Below the pieces are notes generated by a model that had not been told where the DNA came from, did no database searches, and saw only the letters and a list, made by a program, of their open reading frames with translations. Positions 1-57,078 of a stretch of DNA of 64,000 bases are shown here, in pieces. The first letter of the stretch is position 1; each line of letters begins with the position of its first letter. A program made the translations under genes and the position numbers. The stretch comes from Argopecten irradians (lineage: Eukaryota; Mollusca; Bivalvia; Pectinida; Pectinidae): assembly GCF_041381155.1 (NCBI RefSeq), contig NC_091141.1:26432828-26496827 (forward strand), in the 5' to 3' direction.

Positions 1-1196
1 CTCAAAATACTAGCCGAGTGCTCTACCGACTGAGCTACCTGGTCCACCGATGATCGACCCAGTCCAATCCCGCTACACTCCTCCCTCCTTTCTCGAAGTC
101 TTCGCCCCCGAAGACATACGAGACCCTTCCAAACACCACCACCGTGGGTTATTTAGTTGGGCGCCAATTCTGTAATAGGAGAGGAGAAAATGTAGCGGCC
201 AGACCGGGATTCGAACCCGGGACCCTCAGAATACTAGCCGAGTGCTCTACCGACTGAGCTACCTGGTCACCGATGATCGACCCAGTCCAATCCCGCTACA
301 CTCCTCCCTCCTTTCTCGAAGTCTTCGCCCCCGAAGACATACGAGACCCTTCCAAACACCACCACCGTGGGTCATTTAGTTGGGCGCCAATTCTGTAATA
401 GGAGAGGAGAGAAAATGTAGCGGCCAGACCGGGATTCGAACCCGGGACCCTCAGAATACTAGCCCCTCTACCGACTGAGCTACCTGGTCACCGATGATCG
501 ACCCAGTCCAATCCCGCTACACTCCTCCCCCTTTCTCCCTTTCTCGAAGTCTTCGCCCCCGAAGACATACGAGACCCTTCCAAACACCACCACCGTGGGT
601 TATTTAGTTGGGCGCCAATTCTGTAATAGGAGAGGAGAAAATGTAGCGGCCAGACCGGGATTCGAACCCGGGACCCAGAATACTAGCCGAGTGCTCTATC
701 GACTGAGCTACCTGGTCACCGATGATCGACCCAGTCCAATCCCGCTACACTCCTCCCTCCTTTCTCGAAGTCTTCGCCCCCGAAGACATACGAGACCCTT
801 CCAAACACCACCACCGTGGGTTATTTAGTTGGGCGCCAATTCTGTAATAGGAGAGGAGAAAATGTAGCGGCCAGACCGGGATTCGAACCCGGGACCCTCA
901 GAATACTAGCCGAGTGCTCTACCGACTGAGCTACCTGGTCACCGATGATCGACCCAGTCCAATCCCGCTACACTCCTCCCTCCTTTCTCGAAGTCTTCGC
1001 CCCCGAAGACATACGAGACCCTTCCAAACACCACCACCGTGGGTTATTTAGTTGGGCGCCAATTCTGTAATAGGAGAGGAGAAAATGTAGCGGCCAGACC
1101 GGGATTCGAACCCGGGACCCTCAGAATACTAGCCGAGTGCTCTATCGACTGAGCTACCTGGTCACCGATGATCGACCCCAGTCCAATCCCGCTACA
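1..1196 (-). mobile_element. Tandem array of TRIM-like LTR mini-elements with tRNA-like LTRs
   Basis: A unit of about 223 bp is repeated. Read on the minus strand it alternates an LTR-like block of about 130 bp (TGTAGCGGG at one end, TTACA at the other) with about 93 bp of internal sequence. LTR blocks lie at 1-77 (cut by the window edge), 171-300, 394-521, 622-749, 843-972 and 1066-1196. Each internal block starts next to TTGGCGCCCAAC, like a primer-binding site, and ends in a purine run AAAGGAGGGAGGAG directly before the next LTR, like a polypurine tract. No block codes for protein. This is the layout of TRIM elements (terminal-repeat retrotransposons in miniature), here as a head-to-tail array. 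Copies are nearly identical, so expansion is recent. The array stops exactly at an LTR end at 1196. An alternative reading is a satellite derived from such an element. Confidence 0.7.
197..268 (-). tRNA. tRNA-Thr-like sequence inside the LTR (representative copy)
   Basis: On the minus strand this 72 nt stretch folds roughly as a tRNA: acceptor GACCAGG against TCTGGCC, D arm GCTC/GAGC, a TCGAAT-type T loop with CCGGG/CCCGG stem. The A box (TAGCTCAGTCGG) and B box (GGTTCGAATCC) match Pol III consensus, and TTTT follows within about 10 nt. The anticodon stem CTCGG/CTGAG leaves an 8 nt loop, CTAGTATT, instead of 7; read from the 5' side it holds AGT (Thr). Equivalent copies lie near 422-489, 648-717, 869-940 and 1092-1163. 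It probably works as a Pol III promoter or a tRNA-derived piece of the LTR rather than as a translating tRNA. Confidence 0.5.
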
Positions 1197-2422: not shown

Positions 2423-3267
2423 AATGAGAATAATTCACGTACCACGTGATATCAGATAACCTTTGTGCGGAACTATTGTTTCTATTGGTATTGGAATGAC
2501 GTCAAAAGATGATATCCCGCGTTAACGTCTTTTCAGCGTGAAGATTACTTATCTATTATGGCCTGGTTGAGAGGGCAGTATTGCCTCATAGTATTTCCGT
2601 TTTCATGCCATCGGGACTAATTCAAGTACCACGTGATACCCGATAACGTTTGTGCGGGACTAGTATCTCCAGTGGTGATAGAACGTAACTCTTTGTTATC
2701 TTCCCGCTGAAATGACGTTATCCCGCGATAACGTCATTTGACGTCATTCCATCACCAATAGAAACATTAGTCCCGCACAAACGTTATCGGGTATCACGTG
2801 GTACGTGAATGAGTCCCATAGAAGCACGTCAAGCGATACCTCGCAACGCTATCTTCATTTCCACACCACGTTGTTTCATCAAAAGTACAACATATGAATT
2901 GTCGCAGAAATATGGGATTCTATAAAAACGGGATACAGTTTCATGAAAATTAAAAGTAGATCAATATAGAACACCGATGAACTGTCTTCTGTAGAAAAGC
3001 AACATTTGCTTCCATCCACGCACACAGCAGCCTGTCCGCCATCTTGACGTCTTGGTCGAATCTGAACGTTATAATGACGTCATGTAATGGTGACGTCACA
3101 ATACATTCACGTTCAATTTCGCGCCACTTCAATAGTGCCCGCTTGCCCGGGCACTATTGCAAATAGTACCCATGTACTTAAAGTAGTTATACGTTCCATC
3201 ACCACTGGATATACTGGTCCCGCACAAACGTTATCGGGTATTACATGGTACGTGAATTAGTCCCATT
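2423..3267. mobile_element. Cluster of palindromic MITEs (GGGACTAATTCACGTACCAC termini)
   Basis: The clearest copy is 2613-2818. Its left end, starting GGGACTAATTCAAGTACC, is the inverted repeat of its right end for about 70 bp, including ACCCGATAACGTTTGTGCGG. A second palindrome of GAAATGACGTTATCCCGCG type sits at its centre (2709-2739). A related left half lies at about 2423-2520, and a related right half at about 3190-3267, so an older copy appears to have been split by newer material. A small GC hairpin (GTGCCCG/CGGGCAC) lies at about 3135-3155. No coding capacity. These look like non-autonomous DNA transposons with long terminal inverted repeats; no target duplication was resolved. Confidence 0.65.
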
Positions 3268-17300: not shown

Positions 17301-20300
17301 CACTATAAATTCCACTATACAAGAAGACACAACATGAATATATACCGCAGTCTCTCCAGACACGCACCCAGAGCAACATACACGCAACACACCGCATACA
17401 TGGGAGGCTGGCCGTCCTTATAGCATGGCACCATAAAATCTCATCTAGAGACAAATAAGTTACTATTTTTTTAATATTTCACAATTAATTTCTCAACAAC
17501 TGTTGGATTGATCTTTATAAGATTGAACCTCAAACCATAGCTGTTATACGAATATCGATTTTATATCTCCTATCCGATCGCTTTGTGATTGCATAGAGAC
17601 AAGATTGCACCCAGTAACTCATGCCTGATAAATTCAATGTCTTTATTATGTCACTGATATTTCCTTGTGATTTCATTTTTTAAACATCTGCTTCAGCTTC
17701 TCTAAAGCACGTAAACATATACAAGTTCAATATCTTATTGATTGAAACTCTCTGTAAAATTTCAAAGAGGTTTAAAAAAAACTTTCTGTGTGAGCATTAC
17801 AGGTCTGTAAACATATACGAATTCAATTTCTAATAGATTTGAACTCTTTGTAAAATTTTAAAGAGATATAATAAAAAGCTGTCTGTGTGAACATTACAGG
17901 TCTGCAAACATATACGAGTTCAATTTTTATTGATTTGAACTCTTTGTAATTTTTTAAAGAGATCTAAAAAGCTTTCTTTGTGAGCTTTGCCGTTAATCAA
18001 CTGTTCATGAGAGTCCAAAGACAACTCTTACAAAGCACTATATCACACCTGTAACCTCATGATAACATCCCAATTACTGGATAAAGCTATCAAACAATGT
18101 TTTTCTGAAGAGCATAATCCTCGATTGCATGAGATAAGAATCCAATTAGCGAATTAAATTGCATTTTCATGTATTTTTTACTTGGTGTGTTCACTCAGAG
18201 ATCACTAATCAATTTCTTTGACAGGCTGTATCACGGTGCGTTCGTTTCACGTGAAATATCACATACGAAATAAGACTATTAAATCGCCAACGACTTTACG
18301 ATTGGCTATCATAGGCATAAACAACAGTTGTCACGATGTCGGTGCGTTTTATATAGAATAGATATACATTCCTGTATATTTGCATTTGATGTCGATTCTT
18401 CACAAACTTACTTCATTTTTGTATATTTCATGGTTTGTTGAAATAATGGTCATAGCGTTAATATAAAAAACTATGAAGGCAATTAAAGTTATATGTGCCG
18501 TAACTGGGCAAAAATTTTGACATGTTATTTTTTCTTCATTAATCTAATGAAAACCACAATGTTTGACGAATTAAGCTGTGAAAGTCATTCAAATGACTTC
18601 AGATGCCTTATAAAAATTAGCTACAACACATACATTATATACTGTAAAGTTGTTGTATTTTATGCGTTATGTATCTTTAGATTTAAACATACCTGCAGAA
18701 ATCACTTTACAATTAATAATAACACTGTAAAAATGTGAAATGAAATTGTAAACCAAAAGTTGGCTTCATGGTCTGACTGTATGTACACATTTCAATTCAC
18801 TATAGATGTAAATATCATGATTTTTGGCAGTACTGCCAAAAATCATTTTCAGCTCTTATATGTGCTTGTAAAATAAAAACCTATGAATTGAAAGTAGTGT
18901 AATTATCATAATGATGGTTACTTTTGGTAATGAATAACATATTAAAAGCTCATCTCGATTCGTGAGTATGAAAAATACGGCACATATAACTTTAAAAATT
19001 ATTAACATATATATATTTATCATAAAACATATTTTAAAACCAATGGTCAATACTTAATAATCAATTAGGTCAATTAATCATACTCCAAGTTACTTTACAT
19101 ATTTTACATTACCGCAAAACTATAACATATAGAACACTGGAAAGATATATAAAAATGCGAAATATGTTTATGGAGAACGAAACTCAAACTGAGAAAAAAA
19201 TAGTAAGAAGCTATCATTAAGAAATATTCACCCTTTACTAATCATATGCTGTAAAAACAAGAAAAGAAATTGTATTCTGTATCTAAATGTATAATGGAGA
19301 CTTGCTAAACAAAACAATATCTATTCGTATTGATATTTTATCACACTAAACAATACATGCATTATCTGTACGATAAGTGACCGGGGATTTTAATAAGATA
19401 ATTTTATTTACTATGGTAATCATTAATTGATACAATAGCACATACGAAGCCAAGAAAAATCCCGATAAAGCTAATCCATTTCTTTACGATCTGAACAGAG
19501 CCACAGCGGGGAGGCAAGAACGATCCTGAATGTCAGTCTTGTAGCAGACCTCTAACTGTAGTGTATCCCCATTAACAGGAGTTGTTTATAGAGTTGTTAT
19601 AGGATTGTCTTGGTCTTCGTCCTTACATGACCCTAAAACACGACAATTAGGTCCCCTACGACCCTAAATGAACAACAAAGTATCCAGATTAAATAAAACA
19701 ATTTATTTTTGTCATTGCTGGACTGTAAAAAATTGACCTTACCACTGTACATTTGATTTACAAAAATACAAACATGTTTTCGAATATAATATCAACAGAA
19801 AACTGTAAAACCATATACAATAATGTTGCAAAGGTCTACAGTGTTAAGTTGGATGGCCGTCTATATAAATTTCTACTTGTAACCTTCTGGTTTGGTTTGA
19901 AAAGTTAAACAACTAGGGTCATATAAGGACATAGCAGGTTTAGATGCAGCAGGGAAACCACCGACAAGTGTTTAGTACCCGGCAACTGCCCTACATTAGA
20001 CTCGTACCAGAGGTGGAGGGCTTGAGCTAATATGTTGGGACATCTATTAACCACTCGGCCAACGCGATCCCTTCTTTTTACCGTCCAGTTTATTTGTATT
20101 TCCCATCGTAATAAGGAGATAAAGGTTAAGACGAATATAGGATCAACAATGTGCCTCGCGTTTAAAATACAATTATCTTCGTTACATAATGATTACGATC
20201 CGCCTACTCGTCAATGATATAAATAGTCCACAATTATCTTCAGTTCAAATGTCGTTTTCCTGTGGTATTCAGTGATTGGATACACACAAAGTATCTATAA

Positions 20301-22146: not shown

Positions 22147-23375
22147 CGCTAAATCCGGAACCGGAAATAACTAACACAAACTAAGCACAAACACAAACAC
22201 TTATTTGCATTCCTTAGGTAATCTGAATTTGATAACCAATCCAACACAAGAAATAATCCAAATATTCAGTTGGAGATCCTCTGTTACCTGTTTTCAACTC
22301 ATCTTCATTTTTACTCGTAGATGGTTTGAAACGTATTTACCAGCTAAACCTTTCACATATTGACTTTTAGGTCACTTATGCTTATGCACTGTTGTTGGGC
22401 ATTCACTTACGTCTTGGCAAGCAATAATCGATAATGGTCTGCAAAACAATGCAATGAGTCTGTAACAAAAAAACAAAAACAAAATATAATGTTATCTCTT
22501 ATGATTTATCTCAAACATTAAAACTTATAGAATTAACATTGCTTTTCTAACAATCATGACAATGGAAGTATTTTCAAGGAATATTCTCAACCTTGGAAGC
22601 ATAAAAAAAACATATAACCGTTCACTTCTTGTGTTGTAGACAATGTCTTAACTCCATACTGCCTTCATGAATAAAACATCAACACCACTTGTCAATCTGA
22701 TATATTAAGAATATATTGCAATCACTGGGATTGATTAAAGATACTAATAATCTCTGCTTTAATCCCAGTAAAGTGGATAATGTATGCTTTCGTAGAAATA
22801 TAGGTCTTTAGGAGTCTGAGGTAAGGCATCAGGGCGAAACATTGAAAATCATCATCCGACTTAGACATTCATTACAACCGGATGTTGAGCACATCTAAAA
22901 TAGAAGCATTATCACTTAGTTCCAGAGAATCATTAAAGCAATCAGCAGAAAAAGTAGAAAATATCGTGACAATATACTATCTTGTGATCGAACAGTAAAT
23001 ATCAATTCCACACTTCCATATATGGTAACTGAGTAATCACGTAACATGATATAGTCGTGCGAGTGGTCAGTATATGGACATTTTCTGAAAAGAGTGTGGG
23101 TTCCTCATCACAGTGAAGATTTAAACTTTTTTAAGACTTAATTAAATTGTGAGGATGCTATAATTGAGTGATATTGTTACACACACATATCTCTACGTGG
23201 GAATAATGTAATTCGTGTGTTGAACAATGTTTGATAGGGCTTGAGTGCCAATAGTAGACACGATCAGGGCCTGAGTGCCATTGTTTACATATTGCCAGGC
23301 CTGGGTGTCAGTTGTCTCAGAGTCCAAGTTTTTAAAAAACTATTAGAGTCTAGATTTTACACGTAAACACACGTA
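22147..23375. other. Upstream flank of the GPCR exon, nothing else recognised
   Basis: AT-rich, with no conserved exon or clear promoter element beyond the CRE at 22139. Three loose copies of a GGCCTGAGTGCCA-like phrase lie at 23240-23310. Confidence 0.35.
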
Positions 23376-25065
23376 CAGATATGCCCCCCTCATCCATGTA
23401 AACACAAGTACAGAGTTGTCCAACTTATCCATGTAAACACTGGTACAGATCTGTTCCCCTTATCCACGTAAACACAGGTACTGATCTGTCCTTTTATCCA
23501 CGTAAAACACAGGTACAGATCTGTCTCCCCGTTTCAAGGTAAACAAACACAAGTACAGATTTGTCCCCTTATCCACGTAAGCACAGGTACAGGTCTGTCT
23601 CCCTTATCCACGTAAACACAGGTACAGATTTGTCCCCCTTATCCACGTAAACACAGGTACAGATTTGTCCCCCTTATCCACGTAAACACAGGTATAGATC
23701 TGTCCCCCTTATCCACGTAAACACAGGAACATATCTGTCCCCTTATCCACGTTAACACAGGTACAGATCTGTCTCCCCGTTTCAAGGTAAACAAACACAA
23801 GTACAGATTTGTCCCCTTATCCACGTAAACACAGGTACAGATCTGTCCCCTAATCCACGTAAACACAGGTACAGATTTGTCCCCCTTTTCCACGTAAACA
23901 CATATATAGATCTGTCCCCCTTATCCACGTACACAAAGGTGCAGATCTGTCTCCCTTATCCACGTAAACACAGGTACAGATCGGTCTCCCTTATCCACAT
24001 AAACACAGGTACAGATCTGTCTCTCTTATCCACATACACACAGGTACCTATCTGTCTCCTTTATTCGCGTAAACACAGGTACAGATCTGTCCCCCTTATC
24101 CACGTACACAAAGGTACAGTTCTGTCTCTCATCCACTTAAACACAGGAACAGATCTGTCTCTCTTATACACGTAAATACAGGTAATTATCTGTCTCCCTT
24201 ATCCACGTAAACACAGGTACAGATCTGTCTCCCTTATCCACATAAACACAGGTACAGATCTGTCTCCCTTATCCACGTACACACAGGTACATATCTGTCT
24301 CTTTCATTCACGTAAACACAGGTACATATCTGTCTTCTTTATCCACTTAAACACAGGTATAGATTTGTCCCCTTATCCACGTAAACACTGGTACAGATTT
24401 GTCCCCTTATCTACTTAAACACAGGTACAGATTCGTCTCCCTTATCCACGTAAACACATGTACAGATCTGTCTCCCTTACCCACGTAAACACAGGTACAG
24501 ATTTGTCCCCTTATCCACGTAAACACAGGTACAGATCTTACCCCCCTTATCCACGTAAACTCAGGTACAGATTTGCCCCCCTTTTCCACGTACACAAAGG
24601 TACAGATCTGTCTCCCTTATCCATGTAAACACAGGTACAGATCTGTCTCTCTTATCCACGTACACAAAGGTACAGATCTGTCTCCCTTATCCACGTAAAC
24701 ACAGGTTTAAATCTGTCCCCCTTTTCCCCGTAAACACAGGTACAGATCTGTCTCTCTCATCCACGTACACTCAGGTACATATCTGTCTCCTTTATTCACG
24801 TAAACACAGGTACAGATCTGTCCCCCTTATCCACGTACACAAAGGTACAGTTCTGTCTCTCATCCACTTAAACACAGGAACAGATCTGTCTCTCTTATAC
24901 ACGTAAATACAGGTACTTATCTGTCTCCCTTATCCACGTAAACACAGGTACAGATCTGTCTCCCTTATCCACATAAACACAGGTATAGATCTGTCTCCCC
25001 TATCCACGTACACACAGGTACATACATGTATCTGTCTCTTTTATTCACGTAAACACAGGTACATA
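23376..25065. repeat. 35 bp minisatellite, left part, about 48 copies
   Basis: The unit is TTATCCACGTAAACACAGGT followed by ACAGATCTGTCTCCC, 34-35 bp, with many variants. A block at about 24330-24700 is nearly repeated at 27885-28230 on the far side of the transposon, so blocks within the array have been copied. The open frames on both strands are repeat translations (VFTWIRG...) and not genes. Confidence 0.9.
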
Positions 25066-27877
25066 TACCTGAACCGTTTAACGTTCCCAAATTTGCGTTT
25101 CGTTTGCGTTTGCGTTATTTCCGTTAGCAATCGTTAGTGTTAGCAATCGTTTATCGTTAATCGTTATCGTTTGCGTTAGCAATCGTTAATCGTTAGTTGC
25201 GTTTACAATCGTTTGCGTTAGAAATCGTTTGCGTTAATCGTTAGCAGGACCCACTTCCGCTAACGTTAGCCACTAAAAATAGAACTAAATGCCGGTGAGA
25301 TGCTTTGACGATCCGGATATGATATTACGTCTACCGCTTCGTGTAGAAGCGATTATCATAACATCTATGAAATAAAAAAAATATGAATAAAGTGTATTGT
25401 AGATCTATTGCATTTTATATCTCTTTTGGATGTATATATGTTTGTTAGATGTGGTTGAAATAAAATCAGTACAGTAACAAGATCGCATACATGACGTACA
25501 CCCCTATCCGTGAAAACGTTCTGAAATACTCGTATTTAAATGACATTTCAAAACTTCGTGTGATTATCACTTTTTTTATTATTATTATCAGAAACATATA
25601 TCTTATATATGTTTGTAGTTACTATGATTTCTGCGAAAGCAATTCAAATATTAACGAAAATGTCTTACAGAATATTAATGTCAAAAGCATCATTTTACAA
25701 AGAATCCACGACAACTGAAAGATTACACAAGAAAATAGCTAAAACAGATAATAAAAATATAAAAATGTTATTACAGACACGCTGCATAATATTCTTCTTG
25801 TTATGTTAAATATTATCAATGTACGAAGAACGCAAAAAAAAAGACTCGGGAGATTTGTAAATAAATTCGTGAACTTTAAAAATCATTAATATGACGAGTT
25901 TGAACACGGGGAATAGGTGAGATTTGGCATTTACATGTACATATTTTTAAACGCAATTAATTAGTACTTGTATCTATATGAAAATGGAATAAAATGATGT
26001 AAATGTTTGCAATGTACGAGTATACCTACAACTACATGTAGAACACGTGTAGAGAATTAGAACTGTGCAGGGGTAGTACGTTACATTGGAAGCCTTCACA
26101 CATACTGTACGTACGCGTGTCAAATCAGGCACGGATATACGTTTAAGCTTATATCAATAAAAACTGGACAGTCACGGGCACCTTCTCACATGTGTTGGTT
26201 GTTATTTGTACCTGGAATCTTTTCAATTCCCAGCATGACGCGCACGGGTATTTTACCTGTACAGGTATATAGGTCACGACTGGTGTTACCTTGTGTCGAC
26301 CCCCTGTAGCTGGCCACGGGCGGAGTTCACCTGTAATTAACACCTTCTTGGGAGGGAGATTAACTTTATACCCAACTTACCTGTGCCCCGTGCAAAAATG
26401 TACACTGTGACAGTACATTTCACGGATATATATATGTACTGTCGTATTTCAAAGTTTTGATGTGTGCAATATGCTTTCTTATAGATTACGTTGGAATGAA
26501 TTAGCTTACACTTATACATTGTATGAAAAATTAATTTGCTTAAACTGTAAATTGAAGAGTTGCTTGGTGTGAAATGTGATCAAATAACTATATTTCTTAC
26601 ACCAGTTACAAATATACGTAAAAAATTGTCGCAATGCAATTTTACAGTTATCTTCAGTGTGCATACATGTATGCATGTGCATCACTATCTTCATCGTCGT
26701 TGTCATCAATGATTATGTATAATTGACTTAATTTGAATATAAATAACTGGAAGTGAAATATTTTCATTCTTCATCTCTTTATTATATGCATGAACTGTAA
26801 AATGAGAGAACTGCAAATGGCGAAACACGAATTCAAATGTTCAATCTTTATTTCAGTAGCTGTGGCGCGCCGGCGTATGTACATGTACGTGCATTGTAAA
26901 TGTACATGTACGACCCTAAAATCGATGTCTAGTCAATTATAAGCAATGAGCTTTTATGAATGCACACCCTAGTAATATACAGCGTGTAATCCGTTATGAA
27001 ACAAATATTCCGAGAATACAATTTTCCATGATAAGCGGAAGAGCCTTTCGACGATCTGAAAAAACCCTGAAACTTGTGATTGATGCGGGAAACACTATAA
27101 GATGTTAATTATTACCATTGTTGAGTTATGAAACATCGATAATAGAAATCAAACATATAGATGGAAATTTGATTTACAGCATTTTAAATGTGTTTGTGTG
27201 AAAATGTTTCCATTTAAAGTACATGTACCAGTATACGCCTGATCGCTTCACTAAAGTTATGACATTGTGACGGTAATATTATCAATAAAGTGTTGTTGTA
27301 ACAATTTGTTTGTTATTTCTTAAAATGTCGGACAAATATGACACTTATAATAATACAATTCTCTCTTATACATACGGTTGTACAAGTAATGTGTAAACGT
27401 ACGTGTGAAGTGGAAACTTCGTATCGAGTACAGTCGTGTTTTACTTCATTGTGTGATTACAGTTGCACATGTCATTCATTTTGTAAACGTACATTTTGTA
27501 CATGGAAACTTTGCATCGAGTACTGTCGTCTTTGACTTCATCGTGTCCATATAGTTTTCATAGGCAAATGTTTATATGATATACAGAAACTTTAATCCCG
27601 AACATACTCCAGTTTTTCTTGTACTTTCGTTTGTATTTCAAAACATCAAGATCCGTAATTCATTTACCGTCAAGCCGTGTCCGTGATTATAACAATGGTA
27701 TTTCCGGTTTATCATAGCCGATCGTTTTGCGTTTTGCATTAATCGTTAATCGTTAGCCGGTATTGCGTTAATCGTTTATCGTTAATCGTTAATCGTTAGC
27801 AATCGTTAGAGTTAGCTAACGGACGATTTTTTTGCGTTGCGTTTGCGTTAGGTTGGGAACGTTAAACGGTTCAGGTA
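25066..27877. mobile_element. 2.8 kb DNA transposon inserted in the minisatellite
   Basis: The ends are a perfect 25 bp inverted repeat beginning TACCTGAACCGTTTAACGTT. Inside each end is a block of short words such as CGTTAATCGTTAGCAATCGT (about 25094-25250 and 27720-27852). Both blocks read in the same orientation on the plus strand, although the termini are inverted. No transposase frame of useful length exists, so it is non-autonomous. An 85 bp imperfect duplication lies at about 27390-27540. The flanks suggest an 8 bp target duplication (TACATAT and TACTGTAT are similar but not equal). It could be hAT-like, but I cannot settle the superfamily. Confidence 0.8.
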
Positions 27878-29395
27878 CTGTATCTGTCTTCTTTATCCAC
27901 TTAAACACAGGTATAGATTTGTCCCCTTATCCACGTAAACACTGGTACAGATTTGTCCCCTTATCTACATAAACACAGGTACAGATTCGTCTCCCTTATC
28001 CACGTAAACACATGTACAGATCTGTCTCCCTTACCCACGTAAACACAGGTACAGATTTGTCCCCTTATCCACGTAAACACAGGTACAGATCTTACCCACC
28101 TTATCCACGTAAACTCAGGTACAGATTTGTCCCCCTTTTCCACGTACACAAAGGTACAGATCTGTCTCCCTTATCCACGTAAACACAGGTACAGGTCTGT
28201 CTCTCTTATCCACGTACACAAAGGTACAGATCTGTCTCCCTTATCCACGAAAACACAGGTATAAATCTGTCCCCCTTATCCACGTAAACACAGGTACAGA
28301 TCTGTCTCTCTCATCCACGTACACTCAGGTACATATCTGTCTCCCTTATCCACGTAAACACATGTACAGATCTGTCCCCCTTATCCACGTACACAAAGGT
28401 ACAGATCTGTCTCTCATCCACTTAAACACAGGTACATATCTGTCTCCCTTATCCACATAAACACAGGTACAGATCTGTCTGCCTTATCCACGTACACACA
28501 GGTACAGGTGTCCTTTATTCACGTAAACACAGGTACATATCTGTCTCCTTCATCCACTTAAACACAGTACAGATCTGTCTCCCTTATCCACGTAAACACT
28601 GATACGGATCTGTCTCCCTTATCCACGTAAACACAGTACAGATCTGTCCCCCTGTATCCATGTAAACACATGTACATATCTGTCTCTCTTATCCACGTAA
28701 ACACAGGTACAGATCTGTCTCCTTTGTCCACGTAAACACAGGTACAGATCTGGCCCCCGTGTATTTACGTTAACACAGGTACAGATCTGTACCCCTTATC
28801 TACGTAAACACAGGTACAGATTTGTCCCCCTTATCTACGTAAACACAGGTATATATTTTTCTCCCTTATCCACGTAAACACAGGTACAGATCTGTCCCCC
28901 TTATCCAAGCTATCACAGGTAGAGACATGTCCCCTTATCCACGTAAACACAGGTACATATTTGTCCCCTTATCCACGTAAAAACAGGAACAGATCTGTCT
29001 CCCTTATCCACGTTATCACAGGTACAGATCTGTTCCCCTTATCCACGTAAACACGGGTAGAGATATGTCCCCGTAACCACGTAAACACAGGTACAGATTT
29101 GTCCCCTTATCCACATAAAAACAGCTACAGATCTGTCCCCCTTATCCACGTAAACACAGGTACCGATCTGTCTCCCTTATCCACGTAAATACAGGTACAG
29201 ATCTGTCGCCTTATCCACTTAAACACAGGTACAGATTTGTTCCCCTTATCCACGTACACAAAGGTACAGTTCTGTCCCCCTTATCCACGTTTACACAGAT
29301 ACAAATATGTTCCCTTATCCATGTAAACAAAGGTACAGATCGGTTCCCCTTATCCACGAACACACAGGGACAAATCTGTCTCCTAAACAAAAGTT
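27878..29395. repeat. 35 bp minisatellite, right part, about 43 copies
   Basis: Continuation of the array at 23376-25065, with the same unit and the same variants. The first copies after the transposon match those at about 24330, not the copies immediately left of the insertion. Confidence 0.9.
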
Positions 29396-31350: not shown

Positions 31351-33308
31351 GCATCTTTGTATAACTCATTGTTCGTCCCCGTCATCAAGCAGAGTGATAT
31401 CTGAGTTCCAACATCTTTGTATAACTCATTGTTCGTCCCCGTCATCAAGCAGAGTGATATCTGAGTTCCAACATCTTTGTATAACTCATTGTTCGTCCCC
31501 GTCATCAGAGTGATATCTGAGTTCCAACATCTTTGTATAACTCATTGTTCGTCCCCGTCATCAGAGTGATATCTGAGTTCCAACATCTTTGTATAACTCA
31601 TTGTTCGTCCCCGTCATCAGAGTGATATCTGAGTTCCAACATCTTTGTATAACTCATTGTTCGTCCCCGTCATCTGAGTGATATCTGAGTTCCAACATCT
31701 TTGTATAACTCATTGTTCGTCCCCGTCATCTGAGTGATATCTGAGTTCCAACATCTTTGTATAACTCATTGTTCGTCCCCGTCATCTGAGTGATATCTGA
31801 GTTCCAACATCTTTGTATAACTCATTGTTCGTCCCCGTCATCTGAGTGATATCTGAGTTCCAACATCTTTGTATAACTCATTGTTCGTGCCCGTCATCAA
31901 GCAGAGTGATATCTGAGTTCCAACATCTTTGTATAACTCATTGTTCGTGCCCGTCATCAAGCAGAGTGATATCTGAGTTCCAACATCTTTGTATAACTCA
32001 TTGTTCGTCCCCGTCATCTGAGTGATATCTGAGTTCCAACATCTTTGTATAACTCATTGTTCGTCCCCGTCATCTGAGTGATATCTGAGTTCCAACATCT
32101 TTGTATAACTCATTGTTCGTCCCCGTCATCTGAGTGATATCTGAGTTCCAACATCTTTGTATAACTCATTGTTCGTCCCCGTCATCTGAGTGATATCTGA
32201 GTTCCAACATCTTTGTATAACTCATTGTTCGTGCCCGTCATCAAGCAGAGTGATATCTGAGTTCCAACATCTTTGTATAACTCATTGTTCGTGCCCGTCA
32301 TCAAGCAGAGTGATATCTGAGTTCCAACATCTTTGTATAACTCATTGTTCGTCCCCGTCATCTGAGTGATATCTGAGTTCCAACATCTTTGTATAACTCA
32401 TTGTTCGTCCCCGTCATCTGAGTGATATCTGAGTTCCAACATCTTTGTATAACTCATTGTTCGTCCCCGTCTCATCTGAGTGATATCTGAGTTCCAACAT
32501 CTTTGTATAACTCATTGTTCGTCCCCGTCATCTGAGTGATATCTGAGTTCCAACATCTTTGTATAACTCATTGTTCGTGCCCGTCATCAAGCAGAGTGAT
32601 ATCTGAGTTCCAACATCTTTGTATAACTCATTGTTCGTGCCCGTCATCAAGCAGAGTGATATCTGAGTTCCAACATCTTTGTATAACTCATTGTTCGTCC
32701 CCGTCATCAGAGTGATATCTGAGTTCCAACATCTTTGTATAACTCATTGTTCGTCCCCGTCATCTGAGTGATATCTGAGTTCCAACATCTTTGTATAACT
32801 CATTGTTCGTCCCCGTCATCTGAGTGATATCTGAGTTCCAACATCTTTGTATAACTCATTGTTCGTCCCCGTCATCTGAGTGATATCTGAGTTCCAACAT
32901 CTTTGTATAACTCATTGTTCGTGCCCGTCATCAAGCAGAGTGATATCTGAGTTCCAACATCTTTGTATAACTCATTGTTCGTGCCCGTCATCAAGCAGAG
33001 TGATATCTGAGTTCCAACATCTTTGTATAACTCATTGTTCGTGCCCGTCATCAAGCAGAGTGATATCTGAGTTCCAACATCTTTGTATAACTCATTGTTC
33101 GTGCCCGTCATCAAGCAGAGTGATATCTGAGGTCCAACATCTTTGTATAACTCATTGTTCGTCCCCGTCATCAGAGTGATATCTGAGTTCCAACATCTTT
33201 GTATAACTCATTGTTCGTCCCCGTCATCTGAGTGATATCTGAGTTCCAACATCTTTGTATAACTCATTGTTCGTCCCCGTCATCTGAGTGATATCTGAGT
33301 TCCAACAT
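31351..33308. repeat. 56/60 bp satellite with higher-order structure, 34 copies
   Basis: All monomers share GAGTGATATCTGAGTTCCAA and CATCTTTGTATAACTCATTG. Two lengths alternate: 56 bp ending CCCCGTCATC(T/A), and 60 bp ending GCCCGTCATCAAGCA. Four 56-mers followed by two 60-mers repeat as a block of about 344 bp near 31.65, 32.0 and 32.33 kb. A run of four 60-mers at about 32885-33125 gives 99-codon open frames on both strands, because 60 is a multiple of three. These frames are not genes. Confidence 0.95.
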
Positions 33309-34832
33309 TTTGAGAAGGACATACCAGATTATCTCTGATAAACTTTTATTTTAGTGTACTAACGTAAAATCATAATTTTCAGAAAATTCAATGATAAATT
33401 GAACGCTTCCAAATAAAGATCCACTTTGACCTACATTGTACATTTTCAATATAGCGTTTTGCCCTGTGTCTGAATTTGAATTTAGTTTTAATTATGAATA
33501 GGTGAAAATAACAAAAATATGTTGCTATACGTTTTTCCCAATAAGCATTAAGCACGCAACAGTAAGTAATCCATTGTAAATTATTTTGTTCATCCTTAAG
33601 TTGCCACTGATGACCAAAAATAGGTCCCCTGTCATTTCTAATCAGGATCAAATTAGACATTGATGAAATCTCCCGATTTTCCTGGCCTTACTAAGGTACA
33701 AACTACTCGGTATGGTGAACACATTTAGGAGGATTTATATATGTCACCACATTGTAACGTGAAACCGTCAAATATCTGCGAGATATATTTATTGTTCTAT
33801 TATTCTACAATGGATTAAGGATGGCTACACTGTTAAATACCTACCACAAAGATTGTTTTATGTAAAACTATTATGGATGAGGAGACTGTTAAATATCTAC
33901 TACAACTTTTGTTATACGTAGAACTATTATGGACATGAAATCTGTACAAGAAAGGAATAAAACCAATATAAAGGAAACTTTATGTAAGTTTTTATTTTAG
34001 ATGAATATTTTATTATCCACTTGTACATATATAAATAGATTTATTCATGAAAACAATACATGGCCCGTAGATTGATCATAGCTTGATCGATTTTACTGTT
34101 ATTGTTGATAGTAAAACAAAACGCCGTTCGATAACCTTGTTACGAGAATTTTTATCATCTTGATTGTAGTTTCGTGTGTTGGTTTCCATGGTGATGTACA
34201 GATCATGTGTTTTGATCTGTGGAGACATAATAATGTTATTATCACTCATCCATATTTGACAGTGGAGTCAATGTATCGCAAAGAGTTTCGTGTACATTTA
34301 AATCCCTTCTAGCACCATTTCTCGTCATGCGTTCACAATGTAACTGACAAGCTAAACCAGCCATACAAGCCTCTGAGACACCACAAGGAGAGCGCAATTT
34401 GTTCCTATAAAACTACCAGATTGGAACGAGTGAAAATATTAATTGGTTATAGCTTCAATTTAGAGGCTTTTTTTCTTGCTTCATCCAAAACCAGAACGAA
34501 TATTGGTTTCATGTTTCCACATAAAAGACATTATCTTCTTGTCAAGAGCGACCAGCTAAATGTACTACACGTATAGCATACGGCTTTGGTTCGGTTTTAT
34601 GAATGTCAATGTGAATTTGCATCTGTATGCATGAATTTATGGAAGTCATTTGCATCTAGATGATATTAGATATTGATCGGATGAGGGATATGTTTTCTGT
34701 AATTTACATCATTTTGTGGAGATGAAGACAGGGATCGATATGTGTGAAGAAAGATTGTCGGGTCGTACAGAATTCCAAAGATATATAAAAATATATGATT
34801 GTAGATGAGAAATAAATTTTACAGAAAATAAG
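33309..34832. other. Intergenic, nothing recognised
   Basis: AT-rich. A loose two-fold duplication of about 65 bp (AAAACTATTATGGATGAGGA and a variant) lies at about 33800-33940. A 90-codon minus-strand frame at 33388-33660 has no recognisable domain. Confidence 0.35.
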
Positions 34833-35781: not shown

Positions 35782-37257
35782 TTAGTGTGCGTCCTTCTTC
35801 AGTAAGTTATCCTGATAATAACCATACTGCTTCAATCGAAGTTCTTTTATAAACGGTATCTCTGGTATGTTCATATAATGACAGTCCCACTCAGTCACAT
35901 CAAAGGCTGCCGTCCACCTTGATTTTACAACTTTATATGTATCGAAATCGTCTTCGTATTGCTGACAAAAGAATTCTATGTCACGTCTAAGACGTCTGAA
36001 ATAGTTCACTTCCTCGTGTATATCTGGACCTTGCGCTCGTAACAGAGCTTGTAGTTTGTTGTAAAAATGATCATATAGTGCGTAGTCTATCTCGTCCCAA
36101 ATTTGGTGACGGTACCCATCGCCTGGGTTGAAAAGAAAGTCGACCGCGCCATGTCTCTTCACATTCTTCTTAATGTATATAACATCTTTTATTTCCCAGT
36201 TCAAAAGTCTTCTTAACAGAATTAGTGATTCGTCAAAATGTTCTACAACCATTATTAGGTCGAACTCTGAATCTAGTTTATGAATATATCTTTGAATTTC
36301 TGTTTTATTTCTAGTTCGAAACACATGTGGCGGGAAATTATACTCCATTGCCATGCTGTTGTCGAGAAAACTTATGGACGAGCCATTGTTGTAAAAATGT
36401 GGATTCTCTAGGAATCTCGAAACAGGAAACGGGTCGTCGATATCAAACACTTGTTTCGGTCGGAAATAATTGAGAATAGATTTGAAGTGATCAAATGGAT
36501 CCCTCACAATACCAATATAGACAGTGTCTCGTGGCATAATCCTATCAAAGGCAGTTCTGTTGTATATCACGTGACAGCAGGTGATGTCATAGGACCTGTT
36601 CCTAGGTGCTGGAAGTATGTTCCTGCTTGTGATTGTATTCCTGAGACTTATTATGTTCGGGAAGAAAAACTTGGGAACTTTAGGCAACACGACAAGAAGG
36701 TCTCTCCGCATGGCGAACCTTAAGAAGACATTTTGGACAGTCGTGCTAGCGGCTTTGTGTACTTTCAAGAAAGCAATATGGCGTTTTTCGACATCCTTCT
36801 TCCCTCGTACAAACGTCTGTTGTGTAGATACTTTATCGTGGCGATGGGGTCCGGTGTACATCACATAGGATAGCCAGATAATGTACAATACCAGTACAAC
36901 CACCACGTAGTAGGATCTGTGAGGGAAAACAATTGGTATCGCATCAATACAAATGATCGGAACCAGGCTAAGTAATTTAGTAATCCAAATTTGATACTTG
37001 TAATAACATTTATTTACTGATGCTAGTAATACTTACGCTGTATATTTAATTTGCGACTTATAATAAAAGAAAATTACGCCAATTTACTTTTGAGATCGTT
37101 CATGAATGTCAGATCATGCAGTGTCTATCAGCTTGGTTTTACTGGAATACCCTTACTTTCCGCATTCCAATTTTAAGGAGGACATAGATAAATAAATAAA
37201 GATCGCAACATAAACATTTATATCATCTACTAGAAATACTTACCTTAATTTCTTCAT
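35782..37257 (-). CDS. GAL3ST: Galactose 3-O-sulfotransferase family protein (GAL3ST-like)
   Basis: This Golgi type II membrane enzyme family transfers sulfate from PAPS to the 3-OH of galactose on glycolipids or glycans. Exon 1 (37257-37244) gives ATG and 14 nt (MKKL plus 2 nt) before GTAAGT. After a 327 bp intron, exon 2 (36916-35782) completes an Arg codon and runs to the stop, giving 382 aa, typical for the family. Residues about 7-25 form a single hydrophobic anchor after a short basic tail. The 5'-phosphosulfate-binding motif FLKVHKAASTT lies at about 54-64 and the 3'-phosphate motif YIGIVRDPFDHFKS at about 138-151. There are several N-glycosylation sequons (NRS, NRT, NGS, NKT). Substrate and paralogue cannot be fixed by eye; galactosylceramide sulfotransferase is the closest type. 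Splice phase and motifs make the family call firm. Confidence 0.9.
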
Positions 37258-41123: not shown

Positions 41124-43740
41124 TTAGTCATTTTTAGTTTTTATTACATTGTCAAATCTTAATGTCACCATTGTAAACCCTATTATTAGAAATATATCAT
41201 CCATGACGATTCGGACTTGATTCCAATGGTGCATCCCACGTTTTCCCACCCAAAACGTGAAGTCACAGTCCACAAACACTGTATACAATGTCAATAGTAT
41301 AACTATAGAAATAGACATATCACGAAGGAAATATCCCGAGAAGAAACTCAGCGCTGCACACGCGACGATGAGCGTGAAGAAGTATCTACTCCAGTCGCCC
41401 CCTACTATGTGCGAGAGGAAGGCACTTCTATCTTCATTACTGTTATTAAGGATGTATGTCAGCCCAAGAAGGTATAATCCTATAGTTATCTCCCCTAGTC
41501 GACGAGTTGACGATGTCCTGTCCTGTAGGTAAGAATACAATACGAACATCCCCGCACATCCTAAATGTCTTATCCCCATACGGATCTGGAAAAACAAATC
41601 AAATCAGTCATTGTCAATATTATCTTTAGAGATTAAGAATATGTGACCTTATTAGTGATATCATTGTATAATGTTCTAAAAGGACACTAGAAATCATCAG
41701 TTTATATACATTAAGCCATAATGTTGAGGGATCTATTCAAGAGTGTAAAGTTCACCCAGGTTTGTTCTGTTTAATCTATAAACCATATCATTTGATTTAT
41801 TATATTGGTGTAACAGGGTGCAGGATTTACAATAAATTTAATACCTGCCTCTGCCAGGGATTGAACTCGGGACCTCTGGATTACTAGTCTGACGCTCAAC
41901 CGATCGAGCTAAAGAGAAGTTCTCTCTAGCTGAGAGATATATTGCGGCTAGTATGACCAAGGTTACATACTCCCCCTCCAGGAATCAACTCGTCCTCGAG
42001 TTTCCATGGGTCACAACGATTCCTTTGCAGGTATCGTGAAGTACCATTCCCGAGTCCCTACATGGGCGCCAATGTAACAGGGTGCAGGATTTACAATAAA
42101 TTTAATACCTGCCTCTGCCAGGGATCAAACTTGGGACCTCTGGATTACTAGTCTGACGCTCAATCGATCGAGCTAAAGAGAAGTTCTCTCTAGCCGAGCG
42201 ATATATCGCGGCTAGTATTGACCACGGTTACATTGGTCTCACCAATTTTTATCTGACCTACAATGTTCTTCACCAATGGGTGATTTTATTGGCCCTCTGT
42301 CACCAATGCTTTTAATTGGTGGCCAATTTTAAATGATGGCAAAAGGTCAATGTTATAGGGTCAAAGATTATAGAATAGCACAATGAACCATATCCATATA
42401 TACATGTATATGACTTACCCGTTGCCACTGAGAGTAGTGGAGCTGTGTATTGGTGTACATGTTGAAGGCGAAGAAAACCATTTGTCCAGCACACACTAGA
42501 GAGAGCTCTTTTCTCATCACTTTCCCTGACATTAGGAAGCCACACATCAGGAACACAGCAATGTTAGCATAGATCAGGCCAGGATGTAATGGAGGCTTTC
42601 TGTAATTATATCAAATCATAACAATACCAGTAAATTTAAACATATCGATCAGGCCAAGGTGTATGAAGCAGAGCTCGAGGCTTGCTGTATTTATATAAAA
42701 ACCTGGCAAATCGCATAGGAGAGGAAAAAATGAAGCGATTGGACCAAGATTTGAACTGCCCCGATTTCTGAAAACAAACTAAGTCAAAATTAAACCTGAC
42801 TTACATCAATGTTTTCCACTTAAGTTATATAAGCCTATTAAGAAAAAAACCTAAGCCAAGTTCTGACTTAAGTCTGCAAGTTTGTTTAGAGAAATCGGGC
42901 CTTAATTGGTCAACGATGATCAACACTGTTCAATTCCACTTTATTTATTAAAAATGTTTAATTACCCTTGTTATGCATTTGCATATACGGTATATATAAA
43001 TTATATACTGCGAAGAGCAGTACCGGAGCAACGCAGAACCTCACCATGTGTATGAAAAAATGGCGGCCGCAAACTGAAGCTGTCAGCGTCTAGGATTGAA
43101 TTTTGAAAATTGTGTTTTTTCTTACATTTTCGTGTATCCGTTACCTTAGAAGTGCTTCGCAATTCAGGCATGAATTTGAAGGGCTGTGCCCTTATAAGAA
43201 TTTACAATCAGAACTTCAAGCACCAGTTTATTTTTTATTTTTTTTTTTTACAATTTATTGCATTTAAAAGTATTTTATTTCATTTTGATCATTACAATTG
43301 CTTACATGTTTTTTTGTGTTTTTTTTTTTAACAATACACTACATCAGCTGTACAATTTACTCAAGTTGGCAAGGCTTGTTTGAGTGAATATATTGTTATG
43401 TATATTTTTTTTCAAATCCTGTTCTTTTGCTAAATCTACTTATATGCTACATGAGAGAACCGGGTATCTTATTCAACAGTCCATGACTACATCAATACGT
43501 ATATTTAAAATTAGTAGGTAGACGTTTCACTCAAGCAAGCTTTTGGGTAATCTCCCCTTGTTCAGTTCCCATTCCATGGAGCACGGCTTTTTTTAATGCA
43601 TTCCTAAACCTAGAATATGTATAAGTAACTTACGTTTCGTGCTGTGCACGTTCTGCCAGAAGCATTAAAAGAGATAAAGCATTGATAAAAGGGAATCGAG
43701 CTAAAAGAAATTCGGGCACCGCCTTCCAAGTGACAGCCAT
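41124..43740 (-). CDS. TMEM101: Transmembrane protein 101
   Basis: Three exons: 43740-43634 (35 codons plus 2 nt), 42599-42419 (60 codons) and 41585-41124 (153 codons and stop). All have GT-AG junctions (GTAAGT donors) and keep frame, giving 249 aa; human TMEM101 has 257. Matching landmarks with the human protein are RFPFINALSLLMLLAERA near the N-terminus, KPPLHPGLIYAN at the exon 1/2 junction, LGEITIGLYLLGLTYIL, NSNEDRSAFLSHIVGGD, and FWVGKRGMHHWNQV before the last helix. It is a multi-pass membrane protein with about eight hydrophobic segments and no known enzymatic activity; the human protein has been linked to NF-kappaB activation when overexpressed. Intron 2 carries an LTR mini-element and intron 1 a MITE. 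It is transcribed divergently from XRCC4. Confidence 0.93.
41809..42232 (-). mobile_element. Complete TRIM-like element with tRNA-like LTRs in TMEM101 intron 2
   Basis: Read on the minus strand: 5' LTR 42232-42073 (TGTAAC...GTTACA, 160 bp), then directly TTGGCGCCCA (primer-binding-site-like, nine bases of it as in many retroelements primed by tRNA-Lys), about 105 bp of non-coding interior, a polypurine run GGAGGGGGAG, and the 3' LTR 41967-41809 (159 bp). TTGG flanks both sides (41805-41808 and 42233-42236), consistent with a 4 bp target duplication. The two LTRs agree at roughly 93-95% of positions by eye, so the insertion is moderately old. Each LTR holds a tRNA-like stretch with GAGCTAAAGAG-side and GGGACCTCTGGATTACTAG, matching the D, anticodon and T arms of a tRNA-Thr on the minus strand. 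It looks structurally whole for a non-coding mini-element. Confidence 0.78.
42758..42901. mobile_element. MITE in TMEM101 intron 1
   Basis: CCCCGATTTCTGAAAACAAA at the left is matched in reverse by TTTGTTTAGAGAAATCGGGC at the right, with inner TAAACCTGACTTA and TCTGACTTAAGTC also pairing imperfectly. About 144 bp, non-coding. Confidence 0.6.
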
Positions 43741-56385: not shown

Positions 56386-56924
56386 ATCTAAACATTGGAA
56401 TCTAAACATTTGAATTGCTCTTATGTAGGTATGGATATTCACATATAATAAAAATCGCCAGCTGTATTTTAAGAATTCCAATAAGCTAAAATGCACTTGG
56501 TTCGGGTTAAGCTCTTGCTAGTAAAGGATGCCAGATATGATAATTGCTGTTTGCCAAAAGCTCTCATCTTAAAACGCGGTGACATACGTAATTCCAATGC
56601 TAGTTATGGATCGGATGTTTTAACATTATCATATCAATCGATGAGCGATGAATGTCTCTGCTATCCGTAATGATTGCATCGCTTAGAGAAACTTGGCATC
56701 TTAAGAACGGTTCATGTCAATTATCATCCATAATTTTGTCTTAAATCACTTAGACATGGTATGGATTTAAGTGCTTCTACTTTTCACCATGGTATATTCT
56801 AAAATTAGATGTTAGAAACACAAAACTCGGCTACACTCGTGATCAGGCCATTCGAAGCGCTACTGTTCCAGATGGCTGTTATCTAGATACCAGATTTTCC
56901 ATTGATCAATAATTGATGCAGCAT

Positions 56925-57078
56925 TGTACAGAATTTATATAATAAGTTTAATATCTGCCTCTTCCAGGGATCGAAGTCAGGACCTCTGGAATACTAGTCT
57001 GACGCTCAACTGATCGAGCTAATGAGAAGTTCTCGCTAGCCGAGCGTTGCATTGCTGCCAGTATTGACCAGGGTTACA
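56925..57078 (-). mobile_element. Solo LTR of the tRNA-like TRIM family
   Basis: Read on the plus strand it begins TGTACAG and ends GGGTTACA, with TTTAATATCTGCCTCTTCCA, GACCTCTGGAATACTAGTCT and GACGCTCAACTGATCGAGCT in the same order as the LTRs at 41809-42232. No partner LTR or interior lies next to it. It is more diverged than the paired copy, so it is an older remnant. Confidence 0.7.

What the first reader, a model, noticed from the sequence alone, without database searches (positions are those of the whole stretch)
1..1196. LTR mini-retroelements whose LTR contains a tRNA-like Pol III unit, in a tandem array
Seen: LTR-like blocks (TG...CA), a TTGGCGCCCAAC primer-binding-site-like motif, a purine run before the next LTR, and within each LTR a 72 nt tRNA-like sequence with consensus A and B boxes. 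Known: TRIM elements are non-coding LTR elements, and Cassandra TRIMs of plants carry 5S rRNA-like promoters in their LTRs. Inferred: this is an animal counterpart that has captured a tRNA promoter, so its LTR could be read by Pol III. I do not know whether such a family has been described in molluscs.
Basis: partly seen in the sequence, partly recalled or inferred. Interest (0 to 1): 0.9.

Follow-up and report, generated by a model that had tools for sequence, protein, structure and literature searches.

The report
Tandem Helenus-type mini-retroelement with tRNA-like LTRs
The start of this window is a tandem row of tiny non-coding LTR retroelements whose repeats carry a tRNA-like promoter segment; this kind of element was named Helenus in 2024 and is already reported from bivalves, so the find is real but mostly ordinary.

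Summary
Window 1-1196 is a 5.3-copy tandem array with period about 223, read on the minus strand. Each complete unit has an LTR with a tRNA-like segment (31.8-48.4 bits in 5 of 5), a tRNA-Lys-type primer-binding site and a purine tract before the next LTR. I would move the LTR's 3' end from CCGCTACA about 20 nt on to ATTACA (inferred).

At 42232-41809 (minus) lies one complete element: LTRs of 160 and 159 nt (about 95% identical), a 105-nt interior, primer site, purine tract and a 4-bp target duplication, CCAA. A related solo LTR lies at 57078-56917.

The kind is known. Kojima 2024 (PMC10886601) names TRIMs with tRNA-like LTRs "Helenus" and reports 51 bivalve families, 4-bp duplications in animals, tRNA-Lys among bivalve primers, some tRNA-Thr-like segments, and tandem arrays of the zebrafish family. 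Bivalve TRIM arrays were reported in 2019 (PMC6934838). Whether these two families are among the 51, and the host species, could not be checked. Pol III transcription is inferred, not shown.

The parts
1..1196 (-). Family A: tandem array, six LTR starts and five complete LTR+interior units, open at the window's left edge
1066..1196 (-). Family A LTR, first in the minus-strand reading, with the 3' end placed at ATTACA; further LTRs at 972-843, 749-622, 521-394, 300-171 and a cut one at 77-1
   Evidence: the 3' end is inferred
868..940 (-). tRNA-like segment (48.4 bits); others at 1163-1091, 717-647, 489-421, 268-196
   Evidence: A and B boxes
1051..1061 (-). Primer-binding site TGGCGCCCAAC; others begin at 838, 617, 389 and 166
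   Evidence: 11-nt match to recalled tRNA-Lys letters
973..989 (-). 17-nt purine tract before the next LTR; like tracts before 749, 300 and 77, a longer rearranged one before 521
42073..42232 (-). Family B 5' LTR, 160 nt
41968..42072 (-). Family B interior, 105 nt: primer site at 42071-42063, GGAGGGGGAGTA before the 3' LTR
41809..41967 (-). Family B 3' LTR, 159 nt, 8 mismatches and one gap against the 5' LTR
42233..42236 (-). Target duplication CCAA, 5' side
41805..41808 (-). Target duplication CCAA, 3' side
56917..57078 (-). Family B solo LTR; flanks TAAA and TCAA (three of four bases alike)
42715..42940 (-). Probable decayed LTR of family A in two collinear pieces (42940-42903, 42757-42715), with an inverted-repeat sequence between them
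   Evidence: nhmmer E 0.12 and 0.048; alignments; inverted repeat

Best explanation
The array is a tandemised Helenus-type TRIM, a non-autonomous LTR retrotransposon whose LTR carries a tRNA-derived, probably tRNA-Thr-like, segment. Shown here: the LTR-interior-LTR anatomy, primer site, purine tract and tRNA-like segment, and a second family in the same window with paired LTRs and a 4-bp target duplication. Inferred: the tRNA-like segment is an internal Pol III promoter; Pol III starts near its 5' end and at times reads past the TTTT behind it to make an element-length RNA; tRNA-Lys primes the minus strand and the purine tract the plus strand; a Gypsy-type element supplies the proteins in trans. 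Also inferred: unequal recombination between LTRs, or concatenated cDNA, turned a single copy into six or more LTRs with five or more interiors.
For: Array and units. tRNA-like segment: 5 of 5 complete units above the Rfam gathering score, exact B box in 5 of 5. Primer site 5 of 5. Purine tract. Complete family B element with CCAA on both sides and a solo LTR, E 4.3e-31. Families A and B are alike in the tRNA part (0 of 200 shuffles reach the score) and not in U3 (128 of 200). Element lengths, 353 nt if the family A LTR is 130 nt and 424 nt for B, fall in the Helenus range of 311-1263 bp. One unit is called tRNA-Thr(agt); Kojima reports seven bivalve families that can encode a tRNA-Thr.
Against: No target duplication can be shown for family A, since one end is outside the window. 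Family B's tRNA-like parts score 20.8 and 18.4 bits, below the cut-off of 29, and the box scan with two mismatches allowed per box misses them. Family B's LTRs hold no run of four T. Free-energy folds of three tRNA-like segments are no better than shuffles. No transcript, no helper element and no host genome was examined.
Confidence: 0.8

Rival explanations
1. A Helenus-type TRIM by descent, but now transcribed by Pol II; the tRNA-like segment is a relic or has another role.
For: Family B has a degenerate B box and low tRNA scores, no run of four T in its LTRs, and an ATTAAA motif behind the tRNA part, a possible poly(A) signal (letters; the meaning of the motif is recalled).
Against: Family A keeps an exact B box in 5 of 5 units. 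Families A and B are alike in the tRNA part and not in U3. [quoted passage not shown]
Confidence: 0.15
2. A plain tandem tRNA gene cluster or tRNA-derived satellite whose spacers only resemble retroelement parts.
For: In family A itself only a tandem array is visible, no isolated copy with a duplication; ARAGORN calls four tRNA genes.
Against: Primer site and purine tract sit in the right order in every complete unit. A relative with paired LTRs, the same primer-site core and CCAA duplications lies in the same window. Three of the four ARAGORN calls have no ordinary anticodon.
Confidence: 0.04
3. A tRNA-headed SINE, or a SINE inserted once and then tandemly duplicated.
For: A tRNA-like segment with A and B boxes. 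Kojima proposes that Helenus arises from a SINE inserted in a TRIM LTR, so a SINE may lie in its past.
Against: The tRNA part lies inside a repeated LTR with a primer site and purine tract; the family B element has LTR-interior-LTR order and a 4-bp duplication, where SINEs usually have longer ones and a 3' tail (recalled).
Confidence: 0.01

Closest known systems
Helenus TRIMs (Kojima 2024, PMC10886601), animal and bivalve families
   Same: tRNA-like segment in the LTR, primer site for tRNA-Lys, purine tract, 4-bp duplication (family B), lengths in range, tandem arrays known for LTR-11_DR.
   Different: No difference of kind found. The consensus sequences (supplement) could not be read, so identity with a listed family is untested.
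biv-TRIM of bivalves (Satovic 2019, PMC6934838)
   Same: TRIM, tandem arrays of the form TDRx_I(x-1), solo repeats.
   Different: biv-TRIM has 202-218 bp terminal repeats, a 77-80 bp interior and no unambiguous primer site; here 130 and 160/159 nt LTRs, 93 and 105 nt interiors and a clear primer site. No sequence comparison was possible.
Cassandra TRIMs of plants
   Same: Small-RNA-gene promoter inside the LTR; tandem arrays.
   Different: 5S rRNA instead of tRNA; plants; transcripts from tandem copies were detected by RT-PCR, none were looked for here.

Membership tests
Helenus | tRNA-derived sequence inside the LTR | tested here: met
   Family A: 5 of 5 complete units above the gathering score. 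Family B: weak, 20.8 and 18.4 bits, below the cut-off, but alike to family A in this part.
Helenus | Two LTRs with a primer site and a purine tract between them, under about 1300 bp, non-coding | tested here: met
   Family B 424 nt, family A 353 nt per element as inferred. No frame of 120 aa or more lies in family B; one plus-strand stop-to-stop frame of 121 aa crosses the array.
Helenus | 4-bp target duplication (animal families) | tested here: met
   Family B: CCAA on both sides. Family B solo LTR: TAAA and TCAA, not perfect. Family A: not testable, one end is outside the window.
Helenus | Primer site complementary to a tRNA 3' end | tested here: met
Helenus | Similarity to a listed Helenus consensus | not testable with these tools
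   Supplementary data and Repbase are not held.
biv-TRIM | Terminal repeats 202-218 bp, interior 77-80 bp, no unambiguous primer site | tested here: not met
   Lengths and primer site differ.
Cassandra | 5S rRNA-derived sequence in the LTR | tested here: not met
   Rfam at gathering scores lists tRNA matches only in the window, five of them.
Pol III-transcribed TRIM (TRIMp3) | Transcription by Pol III | not testable with these tools
   No RNA or occupancy data; only the A and B boxes.

The most novel reading that the evidence does not exclude
Family A uses the TTTT directly behind its tRNA-like segment as a leaky Pol III terminator inside the LTR. Most transcripts would stop there as free tRNA-like small RNAs; a minority would read through to give element RNA or, in arrays, multi-unit RNA. 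The start of the tRNA part and the TTTT would then set the R region, so that one Pol III unit governs both small-RNA output and retrotransposition.
Probability: 0.2. Interest if true: 0.4.

Novelty: new member of a known kind. Interest (0 to 1): 0.17.

Why it matters
One window holds a tandem array of one Helenus-type family, a complete element of a second family with its target duplication, a solo LTR and a probable relic. Such copies are called as tRNA genes (four calls by ARAGORN) and can inflate tRNA counts, as Kojima discusses for rust fungi. The kind of element was described in 2024, so the surprise is small; the open point is whether Pol III really transcribes it.

Tried and rejected
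Plain tRNA cluster, satellite and SINE readings were considered and set aside (see rivals). Other RNA families: at gathering scores the window shows tRNA only, five matches. Copies elsewhere: an exact pattern from the family A LTR/primer-site junction gave 0 matches in viral contigs and 0 in genome contigs; a U3/tRNA pattern gave 0 in viral contigs. These collections are not animal genomes, so this says little. Free-energy folding of three tRNA-like segments (one of A, two of B) gave z -0.24, 0.15 and -0.16 and no cloverleaf; this speaks against a working tRNA, less against a promoter. The A/B-box scan at up to two mismatches per box does not discriminate by count: 20 random windows gave 1-10 pairs each, the window 14, of which 8 lie in the array; the exact-match level was not counted in the random windows. 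Weak nhmmer matches of family B at 51981-51924 (E 1.6) and 44074-44052 (E 3) were not counted as copies. Of nine frames of 120 aa or more two were scanned against Pfam, so the window was not searched fully for a helper element. Papers: PMC5874043 and PMC10294476, passages only, showed nothing on this element; PMC3532108, listing only. The host was not identified.

Full report
What is there. Bases 1-1196 form a head-to-tail array, period 223, 5.3 copies, 95% matches. Read on the minus strand, six LTR starts (TGTAGCGGGATT) begin five complete units of 221-228 nt and one cut by the window edge. The five complete units differ from one another by 0-3 mismatches, indels aside. A typical unit runs: a 32-nt upstream part; the tRNA-like segment; TTTTCTCCTCTCCTATTACA; GAA; TTGGCGCCCAAC; about 60 nt; a 17-purine tract; the next LTR. 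Four of five units have that purine tract; the unit at 749-522 has a longer, rearranged one.

The tRNA-like segment. All five complete units pass the Rfam gathering score for tRNA, 31.8 to 48.4 bits. ARAGORN calls four of the five: three with a four-letter anticodon (agta) and no isotype, one as tRNA-Thr(agt). The B box is exact in 5 of 5; the A box is exact in 3 of 5 and one base off in 2 of 5. The one family A segment folded does not reach a cloverleaf at minimum energy and is no better than its shuffles. A working tRNA is therefore unlikely; a promoter remains plausible.

On the minus strand, LTR 42232-42073 (160 nt), interior 42072-41968 (105 nt) and LTR 41967-41809 (159 nt) are flanked by CCAA on both sides. 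The LTRs differ by 8 mismatches and one gap (alignment). The primer-site core TGGCGCCC follows the LTR after one base, and GGAGGGGGAGTA precedes the 3' LTR. A solo LTR lies at 57078-56917 (E 4.3e-31 over 57078-56920; full end by sequence); its flanks TAAA and TCAA agree in three of four bases. With the reversed window as control, five of six queries gave no match up to E 5 and one gave a match at E 2.7.

Results against. Family B's tRNA-like parts score only 20.8 and 18.4 bits, below the cut-off of 29, and a scan allowing two mismatches per box did not list them. Family B's LTRs hold no run of four T. For family A no target duplication can be shown, since one end is outside the window. Two family B segments folded no better than shuffles.

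Where families A and B agree. With letter-shuffled controls the tRNA part is clearly alike (0 of 200 shuffles reach the score), U3 is not (128 of 200), the part behind the tRNA and the whole interior are borderline (8 of 200 each), and the interior without its primer-site end is not (79 of 200). They thus share the promoter-like segment and the primer site and little else. The tRNA-like segments are 55-64% identical between the families, for three family A copies against three of family B.

The LTR boundary. Three things favour an end 20 nt further on, at ATTACA. In LTR elements the LTR end lies next to the primer site (established knowledge), and the shorter LTR would leave about 24 nt. Family B has GTTACA directly before TTGGCGCCC. 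And a probable relic at 42940-42715 matches family A in two collinear pieces (nhmmer E 0.12 and 0.048 with the 130-nt query; blastn E 0.011 and 0.040), the second running through TTTTTTCCTCTCCTAT and stopping before the primer site. The relic's matches are weak singly; their order, strand and nearness, with an inverted-repeat sequence between them, make them credible but not certain.

How it most likely works. Inferred from anatomy and from Helenus and Cassandra: Pol III starts at the tRNA part and reads to the next LTR, tRNA-Lys primes reverse transcription, and a Gypsy element's proteins integrate the product with a 4-bp duplication (Kojima links animal Helenus to Gypsy). Tandem growth would follow by recombination between LTRs, as discussed for biv-TRIM, or by other routes discussed for Cassandra.

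Comparison with what is known. I read parts 1-5 of 6 of PMC10886601 and passages. It defines Helenus as TRIMs with tRNA-derived sequence in the LTR, found in six animal phyla, with 51 families in five orders of pteriomorph bivalves, 4-bp duplications in animals, tRNA-Lys among the bivalve primers, seven bivalve families that can encode a tRNA-Thr, and tandem arrays of LTR-11_DR. PMC6934838 (outline, passages, one section) reports bivalve TRIMs in tandem, up to TDR58_I57. PMC7215508 (passages) reports Cassandra arrays. A search for Helenus + LTR retrotransposon + tRNA from 2023 on found one paper; TRIM + tRNA-like + LTR + bivalve + RNA polymerase III found one; both are Kojima's. TRIMp3 found four, of which one, Kojima's, is on this subject by its title.

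Verdict. Whether families A and B are among those listed, and the host species, could not be tested with what is held. Pol III transcription stays an inference.

Noticed in passing
window 41809-42232 and 56917-57078: A second Helenus-type family: one complete element with CCAA duplications and one solo LTR.
   Followed up: yes
window 42760-42899: Inverted-repeat sequence (arms 42760-42780 and 42879-42899, 90% complementary) lying between the two pieces of the probable family A relic; it may be a small DNA transposon.
   Followed up: partly
window 2423-3267: Long inverted repeats, for instance arms 2424-2548 and 2695-2819 (85% complementary) and 2613-2687 and 3190-3264 (92%); looks like non-autonomous DNA transposons.
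   Followed up: no
window 19998-20061 (minus): TGGCCGAGTGGT with a B-box-like GGTACGAGTCT behind it: possibly an old tRNA-derived SINE or pseudogene.
   Followed up: no
window 23360-25063 and 27872-29383: Two arrays of what looks like the same 35-nt unit, 48.5 and 43.5 copies, about 2.8 kb apart.
   Followed up: no
window 31352-33312: 34-copy array of a 56-nt unit at 96% matches, with a 344-nt higher-order period.
   Followed up: no
window 35782-37032 and 41124-41603 (minus): Frames matching galactose-3-O-sulfotransferase (E 2.1e-49) and TMEM101 (E 1.3e-23): consistent with an animal host, not proof of a mollusc.
   Followed up: partly
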